A stretch of 64,000 nt of DNA from Paractinoplanes atraurantiacus (GTDB taxonomy: Bacteria; Actinomycetota; Actinomycetes; Mycobacteriales; Micromonosporaceae): assembly GCF_900215205.1 (NCBI RefSeq), contig NZ_OBDY01000041.1, positions 1-64,000 on the forward strand, read 5' to 3'. Below are positions 15,757-22,275 of this stretch, piece by piece. The stretch's first letter is position 1, and every line of letters begins with the position of its first letter. Made by a program: the position numbers and the translations under genes. The notes under the pieces are model-generated. The model ran no database searches. It saw only the letters and a program-made list of their open reading frames with translations, and was not told where the DNA came from.

Positions 15757-18483
15757 GTGGAGGCCGGGAGACTGCGGGTCGACTCCGGCGTGGTCGAGGT
15801 CGCCGGGCGCGGCGCCGTCGTGACCGCGCCGGTGGCACACGGCGGCCGGCTCGCCGAGCGGCTCCGCGACCTGCGCCGGGCCCGGCGGCTGGCCGGCACC
15901 GGCGTGGTGGCGCGCTCGGCCGCGCCGGTCGGCGAGGCCTTGCACGCGGCCGGTGAGGAGCTCGCCCGGTCGTACGCGCCGGGGCCGGCCGGCGAGGCCC
16001 TGCGTGAGCTCGTCGAGGCCGGTGACCTGCTGCTCGAGGTGCGCGCGGACGAGGACCTGCCCTGGGAGGCGCTGGTCGTGCCCGGCACCGGGCGGCCGCT
16101 CGGGCTGCACCCGAACGTGCGCATGTACCGCTCGGCCCCCGGCGGCGCCTACACCACCGGCACCCGATCCGGTCCCCTGCGGATCCTGGCCGCGGGCGAC
16201 CTGGAACGGCTGCTCGACGTGGTCGAGCCCGGCGCGAACCTGCGGATCCTCGACCGTGAGGTGGCCGGCGAGCCGGTGCACGTGGTGCACCTCGACGACG
16301 CCGAGTGGCTGCCCGACGGGAACCGCCCGGGGCTGGTCGTGGTCGCCGGCCGGGGCCGGGTGGCCGAGCTGCTGGCGGCCGGCGTGCCCCAGATCCTGGC
16401 CCTGACCGAACCGGTGACCGACGGTTACGTGGCGCGCTTCCTCGGCCACTTCTACCAGCTGCTCGCGGGTTTCCCGTCGGTGCCCGGCGCGGTCGCCGGC
16501 GCCCGCCGGCTCGCCGGTGGCACCGAGTGGACCGCGCCCGTTCTGTACTGCCGGGGTGCGCCCGCGCCGCTGCACGGAGTTACCGTGGCCGATATGGACG
16601 AGCCCGAGGGCTTCGTCGGCCGCCGCGACGACCTGCGAACCCTGCTGGAGGCCGCGCGCCGGCCCGGCCACGCCGGGGTGGTGCTGCACGGCCTCGGTGG
16701 CATGGGCCGCGGCAGCCTGGCCACCGAGCTGGTGCGCCGGCTCGGCGACGAGGCCGGCCTCGTCGTGCGGGTCAGCGGCACCGACACCGGCGAGCAGATC
16801 CTCGACACGTTCGGGCGGCTGCTGGCCGGCGAGCCGTCCGCGTCCGGCACGGCCGCCGAGGACCGCCGGCGCCGGCTCGCGGCCTACCTGCGCACGCCGG
16901 AGGAGTTCTGGCGCGACCGGCTGGCCACGGCGTTCGCCGTGCTCGGCTCGCGGCCGGTCACCCTGATCGTCGACGACTTCGCGATCGACCCGCGAGCCCG
17001 CCGGGCCGGGCACCGGGCCGAGCCGGCCGACCCCGGCCTGGCCGCCTTCCTGGGCCGCTGGATCCGCGAGCCGGGCCCGCACCGGGTGGTGATCACCAGC
17101 CGTCTTCCGTTCACCCTGCCGGGCAACCTCCACAAGCGGCTCACCGAGCATCACCTCGGCCCGCTCAGCGAGGCCGAGGCCCGGGTGCTGGGCTCGCGCC
17201 TGCCCGCGCTGGCCGGTCTCACCCCGGCCGAGCAGCACCGCGCGTGGGCCGGCACCGGCGGTCATCCGCGCACCCTGGAGCATCTCGACGCGCTGCTGCG
17301 CCGCAGCCCGGCCGGGTTCGCCGAGGTGGCCGGCCGGCTCGAGGCGCTGCTGGCCCGGCAGGGCGTGCCCGATCCGGGCCGCTGGGCGTCCGACCTGCGG
17401 TCGGCGAGCGACGACGACCGCCGGGCCGGCCTGGCCTTGGCCGAGGCGATCGCCACCACCGTCAACGACGCCGTGCTGAGCGACCTGCTCGCGCTGCTCG
17501 ACGACGACTGCCGGCGGCTGCTGGTCGGCGCCGCCGTCTACCGCCGCCCGGCCGACGAGCCGGCGCTGGTGCGCCAGAGCGCGCTGCCGGGCCTGCCCGA
17601 CGGCCTGGACACGCTGGCCGGCCTGGGCCTGGTCAGCGAGGTCACCGACGAGGAGGGGGTGCGGCACACCGTCCACCCGTGGACCGCGGCGTCGATCGCC
17701 CGGCTCCACCCTTCCGACACCGCGGCGGCGCACGGCCGCGCGGCCGATTACTACCGTCACCGCGTACGGCCGAGAGACAGCGACCCGGTCGCCGACCTGG
17801 ACGACCTCATCGAGGCCCGGCATCACCTGTTCAAGGCGGGGCGGGTGGACGAGGCGATCCGCTTGAGCTTCCTCGTGCGCGAGCGCCTGGACATGTGGTC
17901 GGCCTGGGACTGGGCGCGCGCGGTCTGCGAGGAGACCCTCGGCTGGGTCGAGCCGGCCGGCCGCGACGCCGCCACCCTGCTGCACTACCTGGGCCTGCTG
18001 GCCCACCGCCGAGGCGAGACGGCCGAGGCCGAACGGCTGCTGGACCGCTCGCTGTCGGTGGCCGAGACGGCCGGCGACCGCACACAGCAGGCAACGATCT
18101 GCCACAAACTGAGCCGCCTGGCCGAGGACAGGGGCGACCACGCCGCAGCCGAGCGCCGCCTGCGCCAGGCCCTGCTGCTGGACGCCGAGAACGGCAACCG
18201 CACCGGCCTGGCCACCGGCCAGCACCGCTTGGCCCAGCTGTGCACACTGACCAACCGCCTGACCGAGGCCGTGGCCCTGCACTGCCAGGCCTTGGCCATC
18301 GAGATAGCCCTGGGCCTGCCCGACGCCCGGCTGGAGGTAGCCGACCTGGCCCGCTTGCGAGCCGCCTTGGGCGAGGAAGACTTCCGCCGCGCAGTCACCG
18401 CAGTCCTGCCCGAGGAGTCGGTCAGCGGCCTGGCCCGCTTGCTCGACGACTTCGCCACGGCCGCCGAGAGCCGCCAGAACTGA
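15757..18483 (+). CDS. CHAT-like / STAND NTPase / TPR protein with degenerate active sites
   Basis: 908 residues. The N-terminal region resembles a CHAT (caspase-like) domain: LPWEALVVPGTGRPLGL (about 99-115), then VHVVHLDD, LVVVAGRG (about 194-201), AAGVPQILALTEPVTDGY and FYQLLAGF. CHAT proteases have a His in a VHFxGHG-type motif and a Cys in NAC; here the GHG and the Cys are absent. An NB-ARC/STAND module follows: GFVGRRDDL, P-loop-like GLGGMGRGSLA (about 308-318, where a GK[ST] is expected) and Walker B-like LIVDDF, then TSRLPF. A winged-helix region and TPR repeats (LLAHRRGETAEAERLLDRS, and others) fill the C-terminus. A regulatory or defence-type sensor whose catalytic residues have drifted. 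The start is a GTG. Confidence 0.72.
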   Translation: MEAGRLRVDSGVVEVAGRGAVVTAPVAHGGRLAERLRDLRRARRLAGTGVVARSAAPVGEALHAAGEELARSYAPGPAGEALRELVEAGDLLLEVRADEDLPWEALVVPGTGRPLGLHPNVRMYRSAPGGAYTTGTRSGPLRILAAGDLERLLDVVEPGANLRILDREVAGEPVHVVHLDDAEWLPDGNRPGLVVVAGRGRVAELLAAGVPQILALTEPVTDGYVARFLGHFYQLLAGFPSVPGAVAGARRLAGGTEWTAPVLYCRGAPAPLHGVTVADMDEPEGFVGRRDDLRTLLEAARRPGHAGVVLHGLGGMGRGSLATELVRRLGDEAGLVVRVSGTDTGEQILDTFGRLLAGEPSASGTAAEDRRRRLAAYLRTPEEFWRDRLATAFAVLGSRPVTLIVDDFAIDPRARRAGHRAEPADPGLAAFLGRWIREPGPHRVVITSRLPFTLPGNLHKRLTEHHLGPLSEAEARVLGSRLPALAGLTPAEQHRAWAGTGGHPRTLEHLDALLRRSPAGFAEVAGRLEALLARQGVPDPGRWASDLRSASDDDRRAGLALAEAIATTVNDAVLSDLLALLDDDCRRLLVGAAVYRRPADEPALVRQSALPGLPDGLDTLAGLGLVSEVTDEEGVRHTVHPWTAASIARLHPSDTAAAHGRAADYYRHRVRPRDSDPVADLDDLIEARHHLFKAGRVDEAIRLSFLVRERLDMWSAWDWARAVCEETLGWVEPAGRDAATLLHYLGLLAHRRGETAEAERLLDRSLSVAETAGDRTQQATICHKLSRLAEDRGDHAAAERRLRQALLLDAENGNRTGLATGQHRLAQLCTLTNRLTEAVALHCQALAIEIALGLPDARLEVADLARLRAALGEEDFRRAVTAVLPEESVSGLARLLDDFATAAESRQN

Positions 18484-19068
18484 CGGATGACGGAGGCTGC
18501 AAGGGGTGTACGGGTTTGCCGAGCCCCGGAGAAAAATGCGGCCCATGTACTGGTGCTCAGCGCGGCCGCGTCCGGCGTGGCGGCTAGTGTGGTACCGAAT
18601 CTCGATAGATAGCCGCGGGAAAACGCGAGTATCCGAGCGGTGTCGTTTCCCCAGGGCGCCCGGATCGCCGTGGCTGATTGTGATGCGCCGCGGCCGCAGT
18701 GCCTCCACGGTGTCGAGAGCGACGAGCCAGCGCTGCCGACGGCGTGGACCTCTTCGCTATCAAGCAGAGCCTCTCCACGAGTGAGTTCTTAGTTGAACCC
18801 AGCGCGGCACCGCCCTTCACAGCGGTGCCGCTCCCGTTTCTGGCAAGGATGATCAGCGGCTCAATTGAACGCAGCAGCCACGAGCGTTCGTTCACCGGCA
18901 TAGCTCTTGTAGATCTCCCAGAAGGTCACAAATATACGTCTGCAGCGAGTAGGGCTAGATCGACACGCGTGTTGTGGCGTAGCGGCGGGTCGGCTTGATG
19001 CGGGCGGCCAGCTTAGGGAGGGTCTGGACGGTCGCGTGGAAGCGGCGCCGGCTGCGCACAGCAATCAA
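18484..19068. other. Gene-poor left flank of the low-G+C insert
   Basis: No convincing complete gene. Base composition falls from left to right, so the boundary of the insert probably lies at about 18.75-18.85 kb. Reading the minus strand from about 19,066 to a stop near 18,958 gives a fragment, RSRRRFHATVQTLPKLAARI and further residues, with coding-like composition. It may be the cut end of a lost gene. I see no clear target-site duplication or tRNA. Confidence 0.45.
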
Positions 19069-20859
19069 TCATGTTGTTTGAAGAAAGCGCTTAGCTGCCA
19101 ATAGTGCTTCCGTCGTCGTCATCTTGCGTAACTCATCGCCGTCGCGGGTCAGGTAGTCGTCTGCATAGCTAGAGAGATCGGTTTGCTCCGGCACTCTGAT
19201 GACGACATAGCTCCTGCCACTGTATGCAATAGTGTCTATACTTGACAAAACGTCACCCTTCAGCTTCTCGCCTAGCGGGGCGCTTTGGAAAGCCTTGATT
19301 ATCTCCTTAACGTAGTCTGCGAGACTTTTTGAGAGGGCCTTGCATTCACGGTCAACCCCTACGAGGAACTGCCGAGAAAGCTGAACCGGAACTACTCCGT
19401 CAAGGTTCCTAATCTTTTCGGCGTCCTTTTCGTCGTCAGCTATGCCGATGATTATGTATCCATCGCTACCTGGGCCGATATTCGCTATGGCGGACGAAAG
19501 TTTCGGCAGTTTTTCCAGGAGCCGCTGATTAATCCTTCTTGGCTTGGAAAGAGAAACAATTCCCTGCTTAAACTCATACCTCCCGCTCTCGATAGGGGCG
19601 CGTCTAATAATATTCGGAAATTCTATTTCCATGCGTGGTCCGTGGGTCAGTGGTCCTCTCGTCGAACTCGTAAAATGCTTCTCGATCAGCCCGCGAACGA
19701 TGTCGATATTTTCTTGGCGTTGATTCTCCGTGGTAGTGTTCCTGCTCGGTGTCAACTTTGCGGAAACCTTCGCGATCGACGCGAAAGCGCCAGCTGGGTT
19801 AGAAAGCTCTTGATCTCGTCGAATCATCAGGTCGAAAAAGGCCATGAAGACGGCGTAGAATGGCGTCTTCGCTGATGTGAATGTGCTGGTGCTTACGTGG
19901 GAGCGAAATGCCCCTAAGACTCCGGGCCGAGCAGACTCGACCATTGACTTCATCGCGCCGAGCACTATCTTCGTGTCGTCAGCAAGCTTTTGCGTGCCGT
20001 AGGCATGAAGATCCGTCGACAATGAGCGGCTTTCGGACGTGGTAAGGTCGAAGTATTTATCGAGAACATCAGAACTGACGCTGAATGTGTTTCCTCTAAC
20101 AATCGAGATGCAGATGTCTGCGAGGAGCTGCTCGTCTTCGCTCTGTTGAAGTTGTCTTGTACTCAAGATGCCTAGGCTGCACCAGAAGGTTTCTTCCGCG
20201 GGAATCCCGTACCCGAGTCTCTCACGCGCTGAGTCAATAGACACAACGGGCATCTTCGTCAGGGGCAAGATGTCAGGCGATCCGTCATACCTGAACTCTG
20301 ACGCAAGACGCCGAAGCATAGTCACGAATTCGCTTACTACGCCTGCTTGGCGCTTCTCTTGCGCGCTCAGTTGTCGACCGCCAGAGTTAATGCGCCGAAA
20401 AACTTCGGTTACTTGATCACCTTCGCCCGAGTCAAAGATTGTTACCGCGAGTTGATAGTCCAGTAGATCAGCGCATCTTGTGGCGGGCAGCAGTTTTGGC
20501 TTTCCCGGCTCCGGTTCGAAACCACCTGCCTCCGCGACTTGGCGAGCGCGGGCGAACTCGGCCAGATCGAAGTATGTGGGTTCTTCGGTGTTGGCCAAGA
20601 GTCCGTAGCGTTGCTCGATAAAACCAAATATGGCATCGAGGCGCTGCATTCCATCAATTATCTCGTATTTCTGATCTTCAGCTTCGGCAAGGAGAAACAA
20701 TGGGATTGGAAATCCTCGCAATACGCTGTCTATCAGATTGATTTTCTCAGAAACGCCCCAGACTAGCTTGCGTTGGTAATTGCGATTAACTACCAGCTTT
20801 TCACTGCGGTAAAGGTTGTATGCTTCTTGGATCGACATGCCTCGGGGCGTGATTGACAT
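19069..20859 (-). CDS. DUF262 (GmrSD/ParB-like) fused to Schlafen-type AlbA_2 domain
   Basis: 596 residues. The N-terminal DUF262 domain (about 8-240) has NRNYQRKLVW, FPIPLFLL, the signature IDGMQR (68-73) and FRRINSGGRQLSAQE (154-168), as in GmrS and other ParB-fold defence proteins. A helical middle (240-410) follows. The C-terminus (about 415-595) reads as Schlafen AlbA_2: E424 and E429 spaced E-x4-E in IESGRYEFK, then AIANIGPGSDGYIIIGIADD (457-476) and YLTRDGDELR. Schlafen ribonucleases use such Glu/Glu/Asp residues. No HNH (DUF1524) nuclease is present. Codon use and G+C (31 of 60 in 19081-19140) differ from all neighbours, so it was probably acquired. Inferred role: phage or foreign nucleic acid defence. 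Confidence 0.8.
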   Translation of the reverse strand: MSITPRGMSIQEAYNLYRSEKLVVNRNYQRKLVWGVSEKINLIDSVLRGFPIPLFLLAEAEDQKYEIIDGMQRLDAIFGFIEQRYGLLANTEEPTYFDLAEFARARQVAEAGGFEPEPGKPKLLPATRCADLLDYQLAVTIFDSGEGDQVTEVFRRINSGGRQLSAQEKRQAGVVSEFVTMLRRLASEFRYDGSPDILPLTKMPVVSIDSARERLGYGIPAEETFWCSLGILSTRQLQQSEDEQLLADICISIVRGNTFSVSSDVLDKYFDLTTSESRSLSTDLHAYGTQKLADDTKIVLGAMKSMVESARPGVLGAFRSHVSTSTFTSAKTPFYAVFMAFFDLMIRRDQELSNPAGAFASIAKVSAKLTPSRNTTTENQRQENIDIVRGLIEKHFTSSTRGPLTHGPRMEIEFPNIIRRAPIESGRYEFKQGIVSLSKPRRINQRLLEKLPKLSSAIANIGPGSDGYIIIGIADDEKDAEKIRNLDGVVPVQLSRQFLVGVDRECKALSKSLADYVKEIIKAFQSAPLGEKLKGDVLSSIDTIAYSGRSYVVIRVPEQTDLSSYADDYLTRDGDELRKMTTTEALLAAKRFLQTT

Positions 20860-21311
20860 CTAATATTGCCTTTTCTGCATGAGTTTGATGTTAAGGGCCT
20901 TTCATGCGTTCTCTTTGTATAGAGGAAACATCGTAGATTTGGCAGGCGGTTCTGCTAATTGTCGGAAATCTGACAACAGTGCTGACGGTTTGATTGCTCC
21001 ATTCCATTGGTTTCTGTAAGAAACCATGCTTCGATGCCGTAATCCGGCAAATGCTCCTTCTCGGACTTTTGGCAAAAGGTAATTAATATTTTAATTGTCT
21101 CTATCGGTTAGATTCCGTCTGTTCCGGGCGCCAACCCTCGGGAGTCCCGCGGTCCGGTGGTTGCGCTTGCGGGCAGTTGTTGCGCTGTAGCCTTTCTTGC
21201 CGTCCGACTGGGCGTGTCGGTGGCTAGCTGTTGTCCACCTCGCGTTCGGCGCCTCGAACTGTCCCTTGGTGGCTGCCCAGGGTGGCGGTCCGGTGTACTA
21301 ACGTTCTGATC
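20860..21311. other. AT-rich non-coding stretch upstream of the DUF262 gene
   Basis: About 450 bases without a credible gene. The part 20,880-21,110 is the most AT-rich of the window (23 G/C of 60 in 20881-20940). It should contain the promoter of the leftward DUF262 gene (AAAGGC ribosome site before 20,859). Two small inverted repeats are visible: TTGTC/GACAA around 20,959-20,976, and the hairpin at 21,008-21,026. From about 21,120 the DNA is GC-rich again and leads to the next operon's promoter. Confidence 0.55.
21008..21026. repeat. Small hairpin in the AT-rich stretch
   Basis: TGGTTTC (21008-21014) and GAAACCA (21020-21026) pair perfectly around TGTAA. It stands alone in non-coding DNA between two defence-like loci. 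It could be a regulator site, part of a small RNA or an element end; the sequence does not decide. Confidence 0.45.
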
Positions 21312-21704
21312 GTGAAGGAGCAGTCACAGGGCTACATGCCTCTCAGTGTTGCGCGGCTCGGAACGCTGCTTGCCGGCGCCGACGACTCGCTTCGGTGGCG
21401 CTTGGTCGCTGAGTTCCTGGAGGAGTACGGCTGGGAGCCTGCCGAGTCGCGTGCGAGGCTGCTCGAGGACGAGCCTGCGAGTACGGGGGACGAGCACTGG
21501 GATGTGTTTCTGGCGGCCCTGGCCGAGCATGTAGCAGCGCGCGACGGACGTGACGGCCCAAGTTGGGCCGGATCCAGATCGTTGCGGCGGTTCTGGTTCC
21601 CGTTTAACGGTCGTGCGGCGAGGGTCGATGCGGTCGTTCACGCGCCGGCGGCGTTCCGGCGCCGCGGCGTATTCGTCGCGCGGCAGGAGCTGGAAGTGGC
21701 ATGA
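21312..21704 (+). CDS. Putative antitoxin paired with a nucleotidyltransferase toxin
   Basis: About 130 residues, no named domain that I recognise. It starts from a GTG at 21312 (or the ATG at 21336) and contains SLRWRLVAEFLEEYGWEP, EPASTGDEHWDVFLAALAEH and AFRRRGVFVARQELE. Its end overlaps the start of the nucleotidyltransferase gene in ATGA, the usual layout of an antitoxin-first operon. I recall similar small proteins preceding DUF6036-type nucleotidyltransferases in actinomycetes, hence the call. Almost no leader separates the promoter-like TACTAAC from the GTG, so a leaderless message is possible. Confidence 0.6.
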   Translation: MKEQSQGYMPLSVARLGTLLAGADDSLRWRLVAEFLEEYGWEPAESRARLLEDEPASTGDEHWDVFLAALAEHVAARDGRDGPSWAGSRSLRRFWFPFNGRAARVDAVVHAPAAFRRRGVFVARQELEVA

Positions 21705-22237
21705 CCGACGACGGTGTGTTGCTTGATCGAAGCGCGATCGAGGACGCCTTCCGGCGGCTGGGTGATCGGCTGGAGCGTCGAGGCGTGGTAGCCGACCTCT
21801 ACATCTTCGGCGGCGCGGCGATGTCGCTGGTCTACGACAGTCGACGAGCTACTCGGGACATTGACGCAGTGTTCCAACCGCACGGTGTGGTGCTCGAAGA
21901 GGCGCATGCCGTAGCGGAGGAACTGGGCCTTCCGCAGTGGTGGCTGAACGAGCAGGCCAGCGTCTATATCGCCTCCGGGGGCGACAGCGCCGCCTCCAGA
22001 GTTTTCGACCACCCGGGCTTGCGGGTGTCGGCGGCCTCGCCGGAGCATTTGTTGGCGATGAAGGTGTTGGCGGGTCGTCGTCGGGACGCCGACGACGTGA
22101 AGGTGTTGGTGTCGCACCTGGGACTCACGTCCGCCGCGCAGGTGCTGGCGCTGTCGGCGGACATCTTCCCGGAGGAAGAGGTTCCGCCTAGGGCTCGGCT
22201 GATCCTCGAAGGAATTTTCGATTCCGAGGAGTCCTGA
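21701..22237 (+). CDS. DUF6036-type nucleotidyltransferase (toxin-like)
   Basis: 178 residues with the minimal nucleotidyltransferase core: a Gly-rich motif FGGAAMSLVYD, then the metal-binding pair in RDIDAVF, and EHLLAMKVLAGRRRDADDVKVL typical of AbiEii/DUF6036-like toxins, in which the last Asp residues complete the site. Such enzymes transfer nucleotides onto tRNA or protein and are usually held by a neighbour. It is translationally coupled to the small upstream gene. Together with the adjacent DUF262 gene it suggests a small defence island. Confidence 0.75.
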   Translation: MTDDGVLLDRSAIEDAFRRLGDRLERRGVVADLYIFGGAAMSLVYDSRRATRDIDAVFQPHGVVLEEAHAVAEELGLPQWWLNEQASVYIASGGDSAASRVFDHPGLRVSAASPEHLLAMKVLAGRRRDADDVKVLVSHLGLTSAAQVLALSADIFPEEEVPPRARLILEGIFDSEES

Positions 22238-22275
22238 GTTCTCTCCAAGGTGTCGCGCAGCCGGACCCGGCCGGG

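What the first reader, a model, noticed from the sequence alone, without database searches (positions are those of the whole stretch)
19069..20859. DUF262 fused to a Schlafen-type AlbA_2 domain in a low-G+C insert
The N-terminus has the DUF262 marks (IDGMQR, FRRINSGG) of GmrSD- and SspE-like defence proteins. The C-terminus lacks the usual HNH/DUF1524 nuclease and instead carries an E-x4-E-F-K pair (E424, E429) and GYIIIGIADD, the arrangement of catalytic acids in Schlafen tRNA/rRNA nucleases. A foreign-DNA or nucleotide sensor joined to a suspected RNase would act by abortive infection. I know of no described system with this architecture, but I could not search.
Basis: partly seen in the sequence, partly recalled or inferred. 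Interest (0 to 1): 0.85.

Follow-up and report, generated by a model that had tools for sequence, protein, structure and literature searches.

The report
GmrS-type sensor fused to Schlafen nuclease
A single bacterial protein joins the sensor half of a known anti-phage restriction enzyme to a Schlafen-type nuclease domain, and some of its relatives sit at known phage-defence cargo sites, so it is probably an uncharacterised one-gene anti-phage system.

Summary
A 596-aa ORF on the minus strand matches PF03235 (GmrSD_N, 7.6e-22) and PF04326 (SLFN_AlbA_2, 9.6e-6, just over Pfam's cut-off), with no DUF1524/HNH hit. It belongs to a real family: in 39 aligned full-length members the sensor motifs and the Schlafen core ExxxxExK (E424, E/D429, K431) hold in 39 of 39, and the third acid, 475, is D or E in 39 of 39. 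The modelled C-terminus finds 3lmm, Schlafens and 2kyy as Foldseek rows 1-14. No common partner gene was found. Copies occupy the P2 gpA-gpQ hotspot (5 of 27 viral-contig loci), the P4 psu-int hotspot, integrative elements (one with Kiwa) and plasmids. In the window it lies in a 3.8-kb low-GC insert absent from relatives. Best reading: a one-gene anti-phage system, a GmrS-like NTP-gated sensor switching on a Schlafen RNase. Defence rests on location; RNA as substrate and abortive infection are inferred. PHROGs holds the family without function (phrog_26759). My literature searches found no description, but a 2025 preprint on bacterial Schlafens could not be read.

The parts
19069..20859 (-). 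Whole gene, 596 aa, DUF262-linker-SLFN_AlbA_2
20344..20811 (-). DUF262 / GmrSD_N domain, residues 17-172, with QR (Q29 R30), IDGMQR (69-73) and FRRIN (154-158)
   Evidence: conservation
19591..20343 (-). Mainly helical linker, residues 173-423
   Evidence: model secondary structure
19120..19590 (-). SLFN_AlbA_2 domain, residues 424-580
   Evidence: model and fold search
19567..19590 (-). ExxxxExK core, residues 424-431
   Evidence: E424 and K431 39 of 39, residue 429 E 29 / D 10
19435..19437 (-). D475, aligned with the second D of the Schlafen GVDD (SLFN13 D248)
   Evidence: D 34 / E 5 of 39
18484..22275 (.). Low-GC insert between two convergent chromosomal genes; holds this gene and the pair 21231-22237

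Best explanation
It is a mobile, one-gene anti-phage system. The DUF262 domain (GmrS type, ParB/Srx fold) binds NTP and senses an infection cue, most likely phage DNA or phage-made nucleotides. Through the helical linker it holds the C-terminal Schlafen AlbA_2 nuclease in check. On sensing, the nuclease is released and cleaves RNA, most likely tRNA or rRNA, with metal held by E424, E429 and D475 and with K431 at the phosphate. Translation stops and the infection aborts. Shown here: architecture, conservation, predicted fold, mobility, and copies at known defence hotspots. Inferred: NTP binding, trigger, RNA as substrate, abortive outcome.
For: Both domains by Pfam and in relatives. Catalytic core conserved in 39 of 39. 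N- and C-terminal distances correlate, Mantel r 0.89, p 0.001, so the two parts travel as a unit. Whole model: BrxU first in Foldseek, 1.7e-4. C-terminal model: rows 1-14 are 3lmm (4 rows), Schlafen 5/11/13/14 (9 rows) and 2kyy (1 row). P2 A-Q site: 5 of 27 viral-contig loci and 3 of 7 opened E. coli hits; P4 psu-int: 2 of 7; MobQ-bearing integrative elements: 2 of 7, one with KwaAB. Rousset et al. describe both sites as antiviral hotspots and tested cargo (PMC9122126; abstract, passages and one part). No common partner in 38 loci. ExxxxExK is essential for RNA cleavage in SLFN14 (PMC12215978, passages).
Against: No activity was tested. PF04326 is only just over the cut-off here and fails in some members. 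The PDB sequence hit to SLFN11 is weak (E 0.016; HEPN toxins follow at 0.068 and 0.084), and Foldseek TM-scores are modest (0.34-0.46 of the query), with rmsd of 9-13 A to the Schlafens. One AlbA_2 lobe, not two. Ten of 39 have D at 429. ExxxxExK is also present in another AlbA_2 protein of the same genome, L103, so it does not by itself mark an RNase; its likeness to restriction nucleases leaves DNA open. Hotspots also carry non-defence cargo, and 22 of 27 viral-contig loci are not at the A-Q site. No full-length copy among 50,697 phage records.
Confidence: 0.55

Rival explanations
1. A type IV restriction enzyme with a swapped nuclease: DUF262 reads modified phage DNA, as in GmrSD and BrxU, and the AlbA_2 domain cuts that DNA in place of the HNH domain.
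For: BrxU is the best whole-model match. DUF262 proteins of known function sense modified DNA (PMC10952713, PMC12137116; passages). The E-EhK core resembles the D-(D/E)hK of restriction nucleases (PMC12215978, passages); 10 of 39 members have D at 429.
Against: The nearest solved relatives with known activity are Schlafen RNases. No DNA-modification gene recurs beside it except a DNA adenine methylase in 7 of 38 loci, in L039/L099 part of the P2-type replication region.
Confidence: 0.22
2. AlbA_2 acts only as a nucleic-acid-binding module and the DUF262 part is the effector or a regulator.
For: Pfam long treated AlbA_2 as a putative DNA-binding domain (recalled); NCBI names the separated C-terminal piece 'RNA-binding domain-containing protein'.
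Against: Binding alone does not explain invariant E424 and K431 and an acid at 429 and 475 in 39 of 39.
Confidence: 0.1
3. A plasmid or prophage stabilisation toxin rather than a phage-defence system.
For: IncF-type plasmid copies sit beside PemIK; in the window it shares an insert with a DUF6036/AbiEii-like pair.
Against: No common antitoxin partner was found (HigA-like genes near 3 of 38 loci, 495-3,306 bp away). Many E. coli plasmids carry only pieces: 803 of 5,426 genomes match the plasmid gene, 105 hold 80% or more of it. P2 copies lie where P2 has old and tin.
Confidence: 0.08

Closest known systems
GmrSD / BrxU / SspE (DUF262 + DUF1524)
   Same: DUF262 with the QR, DGxQR and FxxxN motifs, helical linker, C-terminal nuclease on one chain; BrxU is the best whole-model structural match
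   Different: No DUF1524/HNH; Schlafen AlbA_2 instead; DG[M/L/V]QR instead of DGQQR
Schlafen nucleases (SLFN11, 13, 14)
   Same: AlbA_2 fold, ExxxxExK, and an acid at the place of SLFN13 D248
   Different: One lobe instead of two; fused to DUF262; substrate unknown
Schlafen-family genes linked to BREX (PMC12839542, passages)
   Same: Schlafen domain proposed as a suicidal effector in bacterial defence
   Different: There fused to a minimal histidine kinase and wHTH and linked to BREX genes; here DUF262-fused and solo
ptuXYZ (PMC11980606, passages)
   Same: DUF262 without DUF1524, together with an RNase
   Different: Three genes; the RNase is of BECR fold on a separate protein
DUF262-HNH-HEPN fusion VNG7073 (PMC3710099, passages)
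   Same: DUF262 on one chain with a predicted RNase domain (HEPN)
   Different: HEPN not Schlafen, and an HNH is present
PD-T4-2, Menshen, Dazbog (PMC10952713, passages)
   Same: DUF262 defence genes without DUF1524
   Different: Multi-gene systems (Menshen pairs it with an OLD nuclease); no Schlafen part named in the passages
phrog_26759
   Same: Matches residues 3-592 of 596, E 3.7e-104
   Different: No function assigned

Membership tests
GmrSD type IV restriction enzymes | DUF262 domain (PF03235) | tested here: met
GmrSD type IV restriction enzymes | DGQQR nucleotide-pocket motif | tested here: inconclusive
   D, G, Q72 and R73 kept; the first Q is M 17, L 21 or V 1 in 39 (D69, Q72, R73 recounted)
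GmrSD type IV restriction enzymes | DUF1524/HNH nuclease | tested here: not met
   no hit at E up to 10, filters dropping most above 0.1
GmrSD type IV restriction enzymes | cleavage of modified DNA | not testable with these tools
   bench assay needed
Schlafen (SLFN_AlbA_2) nucleases | PF04326 over the curated cut-off | tested here: met
   26.6 against 25.3 bits; not met by L101 and L027
Schlafen (SLFN_AlbA_2) nucleases | ExxxxExK core | tested here: met
   39 of 39 if D is allowed at 429; 29 of 39 strictly
Schlafen (SLFN_AlbA_2) nucleases | third acid (SLFN13 D248) | tested here: met
   residue 475, D 34 / E 5 of 39; register
Schlafen (SLFN_AlbA_2) nucleases | two-lobed nuclease domain (U-shaped pseudo-dimer) | tested here: not met
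   one AlbA_2 match; a homodimer was not modelled
Schlafen (SLFN_AlbA_2) nucleases | RNase activity | not testable with these tools
   bench assay needed
P2/P4 hotspot anti-phage cargo | family members at gpA-gpQ or psu-int | tested here: met
   (not the window copy itself)
P2/P4 hotspot anti-phage cargo | protects against phage | not testable with these tools
   plating assay needed
PADLOC families NsnA, PD-T4-2_A, HEC-05, PDC-M55C | match over most of the model | tested here: not met
   hits cover the DUF262 part only, e.g. NsnA 2.1e-31 at residues 2-188, model 45-214 of 385
phrog_26759 | match over most of the model | tested here: met
   model 4-592 of 593

The most novel reading that the evidence does not exclude
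A widespread mobile family, in P2 prophages, P4 satellites, integrative elements and plasmids of three phyla, in which a GmrS-type NTP-gated phage sensor directly controls a Schlafen tRNA/rRNA nuclease on one polypeptide: a bacterial one-gene counterpart of the antiviral Schlafens and the first DUF262-Schlafen fusion described.
Probability: 0.45. Interest if true: 0.75.

Novelty: new variant of a known kind. Interest (0 to 1): 0.6.

Why it matters
DUF262 is a recurrent sensor domain of anti-phage systems; in the passages I read its effector is mostly a DNA nuclease, or an effector encoded by a separate gene. A fusion to a Schlafen nuclease would show the same sensor driving RNA cleavage and would tie bacterial defence to the antiviral Schlafens of mammals. 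Copies occur in E. coli prophages, satellites and plasmids, so the idea can be tested at once in laboratory strains.

Tried and rejected
Considered and dropped: (1) a chance AlbA_2 match: rejected by conservation and by the fold search. (2) Third acid out of register: I first took the Schlafen acid to be the first D of GVDD, because pig SLFN11 has one residue more; the rat SLFN13 row shows that D248 is the second D. Notebook entry 3 is wrong on that point, and entry 4 is wrong in giving 1 bp between the flanking genes of the empty site (one search gives overlap in L133 and L135 and 6 bases in L136). (3) A conserved partner gene: 606 ORFs from 38 loci were clustered; the recurrent families are mainly phage genes (P2-type A, Q, P and capsid genes in 4-5 loci), a DNA adenine methylase (7 loci) and a HigA-like antitoxin (3 loci) (named by eye, the P2 A, Q and P genes checked). 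(4) Membership of the PADLOC families: only the DUF262 part matches.

Led nowhere: viral-contig scan with the single protein (no relative); NCBIfam (no family); phage records (56 of 50,697 match, none over 80% of the query). Prevalence near the window is low: class survey 17 of 394 genomes at 1e-10, of which 5, the window's included, have a full or near-full single ORF, one (G224) has two halves on different contigs, and 11 match in the DUF262 part only; phylum survey with the profile 2 of 396 at 1e-60, the window's included. Clustering of the acids in the model could not be measured.

Rows dropped before counts: of 64 viral-contig loci, 37 were left out (5 near-identical, 3 cut or broken, 29 with DUF262 only). 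Alignment A2 used 23 of the 64 plus the window, L001 and L002; the set of 39 adds 13 from genomes, plasmids and E. coli. L046, L051, L057 and L060 look broken and were not aligned; L046 has a fragment matching P2 Q 48 bp away but also S and int, and was not counted as an A-Q site.

Full report
What is there. The ORF at 19069-20859 lies on the minus strand, 596 aa, ATG start. Pfam gives PF03235 GmrSD_N (7.6e-22, residues 17-172) and PF04326 SLFN_AlbA_2 (9.6e-6, 26.6 bits against a cut-off of 25.3, residues 424-580); no DUF1524 or HNH is listed with the limit at E 10, though HMMER's filters drop most matches above 0.1. PADLOC models match the DUF262 part only; NCBIfam has nothing; PHROGs has phrog_26759, unknown function, over residues 3-592. 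The same genome has two further DUF262-type matches and two further AlbA_2 proteins, none of them this fusion.

The family. Thirty-nine full-length members were aligned (12 key positions recounted). D69, Q72, R73, R156, N158, E424, K431, N460, G472 and R572 are invariant; 429 is E 29, D 10; 475 is D 34, E 5; 430 is F, L, Y, M or C. Distances in the N-terminal and C-terminal parts correlate (Mantel r 0.89, p 0.001), so the two domains have travelled together.

Fold. AlphaFold2 with 26 family sequences gives pLDDT 85.3 and pTM 0.80 for the whole and 92.8 and 0.89 for residues 404-596. For the whole, Foldseek in the PDB puts BrxU first (1.7e-4), then 3lmm (1.0e-3), SLFN11, SLFN5 and SLFN13, then ParB/Noc CTPases. 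In the viral library the top rows with names are mostly DUF262 proteins, including those of giant viruses. For the C-terminus, rows 1-14 are 3lmm (best 3.6e-5), SLFN5, SLFN11, SLFN14, SLFN13 and 2kyy; row 15 falls to probability 0.13. 3lmm and 2kyy are AlbA_2-type as I recall. TM-scores are modest (0.34-0.46 of the query) and rmsd to the Schlafens is 9-13 A, so this is a divergent member. A profile of the C-terminus against PDB sequences puts pig SLFN11 first at a weak E of 0.016, aligning E424, E429 and K431 with its ExxxxEFK and D475 with the second D of GVDD. In rat SLFN13 that second D is D248: the sequence, numbered from E205, gives E210, E221, E229, D248 and E249, all acids named in PMC5862951 (passages). 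In SLFN14, ExxxxExK is the essential core and the tandem aspartates matter less (PMC12215978, passages).

Setting in the window. The gene and a DUF6036/AbiEii-like nucleotidyltransferase with a small ORF upstream (21231-22237) lie in 18484-22275, GC 0.572 against 0.725 and 0.705 around. In three same-genus relatives (L133, L135, L136) the genes of the two sides are neighbours with ends overlapping or 6 bases apart; in L134, L137 and L138 the left flanking gene is also missing. So the gene probably arrived in this lineage on a small insert. ARAGORN finds no tRNA in the window; I did not search for an integrase at the site.

Setting elsewhere. In P2 (NC_001895) old and tin lie between A and Q. 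Five of 27 viral-contig loci (L037, L038, L039, L041, L050) have the family gene between A and Q; L049 has it between S and V, where P2 has orf30. A blastn search with the L039 gene matched 41 of 5,426 E. coli genomes; opening 7 of these 41 gave 3 at A-Q, 2 at P4 psu-int and 2 next to a MobQ relaxase gene, one of them with KwaAB and Dcm/Vsr. Rousset et al. describe gpA-gpQ and psu-int as hotspots of antiviral systems, tested several, and also note non-defence cargo; DUF262, GmrSD and AlbA do not occur in the main text (PMC9122126; supplements not seen). Seven intact plasmid copies opened have varied neighbours: R-M genes, IS elements, a HigA-like antitoxin, PemIK. No common partner emerged. 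The family is solo cargo, at least in part at sites known for defence genes; 22 of 27 viral-contig loci are at other places.

Mechanism. For DUF262 the papers report NTP binding or hydrolysis tied to a C-terminal nuclease in GmrSD, BrxU, SspE and GrwA (PMC10952713, PMC12137116; passages). With a Schlafen nuclease in that place, the economical reading is a sensor-gated RNase that stops translation. This is inference. DNA cleavage is the main rival, since E-EhK resembles restriction nucleases. Solo occurrence argues against a toxin-antitoxin pair.

Novelty. Searches: DUF262 with Schlafen (1 paper of 5.39 million; its passages, give a DUF262-HNH-HEPN fusion and, separately, Schlafen-HEPN fusions, not this one); GmrSD/DUF262/AlbA terms (117 papers, 20 listed, 2 opened by passages); DUF262 with fused, abortive infection and RNase (4 papers, 3 opened by passages); DUF262 with hotspot and satellite (5 papers, 4 opened by passages); PF03235 with PF04326 (0); GmrSD with Schlafen (1, separate passages). 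None of the passages describes this fusion. The GmrSD phylogenomic study names other extra domains (PMC4619093, passages). A survey of common enterobacterial GmrSD clusters reports 12 single-gene forms with HNH/DUF1524 and 3 two-gene forms (PMC12373910, passages). The main text of DefensePredictor holds none of DUF262, Schlafen or AlbA (PMC13092281, term search only). [quoted passage not shown] not held) may contain this family. Verdict: new variant of a known kind, well supported as a family, function unproven.

Noticed in passing
window 21231-22237 (+): A DUF6036/AbiEii-like nucleotidyltransferase (PF19502 3.4e-7, PF08843 7.4e-6) with a small ORF directly upstream, in the same insert as the fusion gene; looks like a type IV toxin-antitoxin-like pair. 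Related genes occur in 10 of the 29 other relatives searched.
   Followed up: partly
E. coli plasmids, L146 and L147: The plasmid copy is often present only as pieces (803 of 5,426 genomes match, 105 hold 80% or more); in the two opened, an IS1 transposase remnant lies at the broken end.
   Followed up: partly
L049:7968-9740: A full-length copy lies between P2-type V and S genes, where P2 has the non-essential orf30, perhaps another cargo site.
   Followed up: no
L103 and L104 (own genome, contigs 30 and 47): Two other AlbA_2 proteins in the same genome; L103 also has an ExxxxEFK motif.
   Followed up: no
PDB 9ylu (CbCash), seen: A recent PDB protein named CbCash matches the C-terminal profile weakly (E 0.14) with a GVID motif; it may be a bacterial Schlafen of interest.
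   Followed up: no
window 15757-18483 (+): AAA_16/TPR protein left of the insert; shorter matches or none at this place in the six relatives looked at, so the spot seems variable in the genus.
   Followed up: partly
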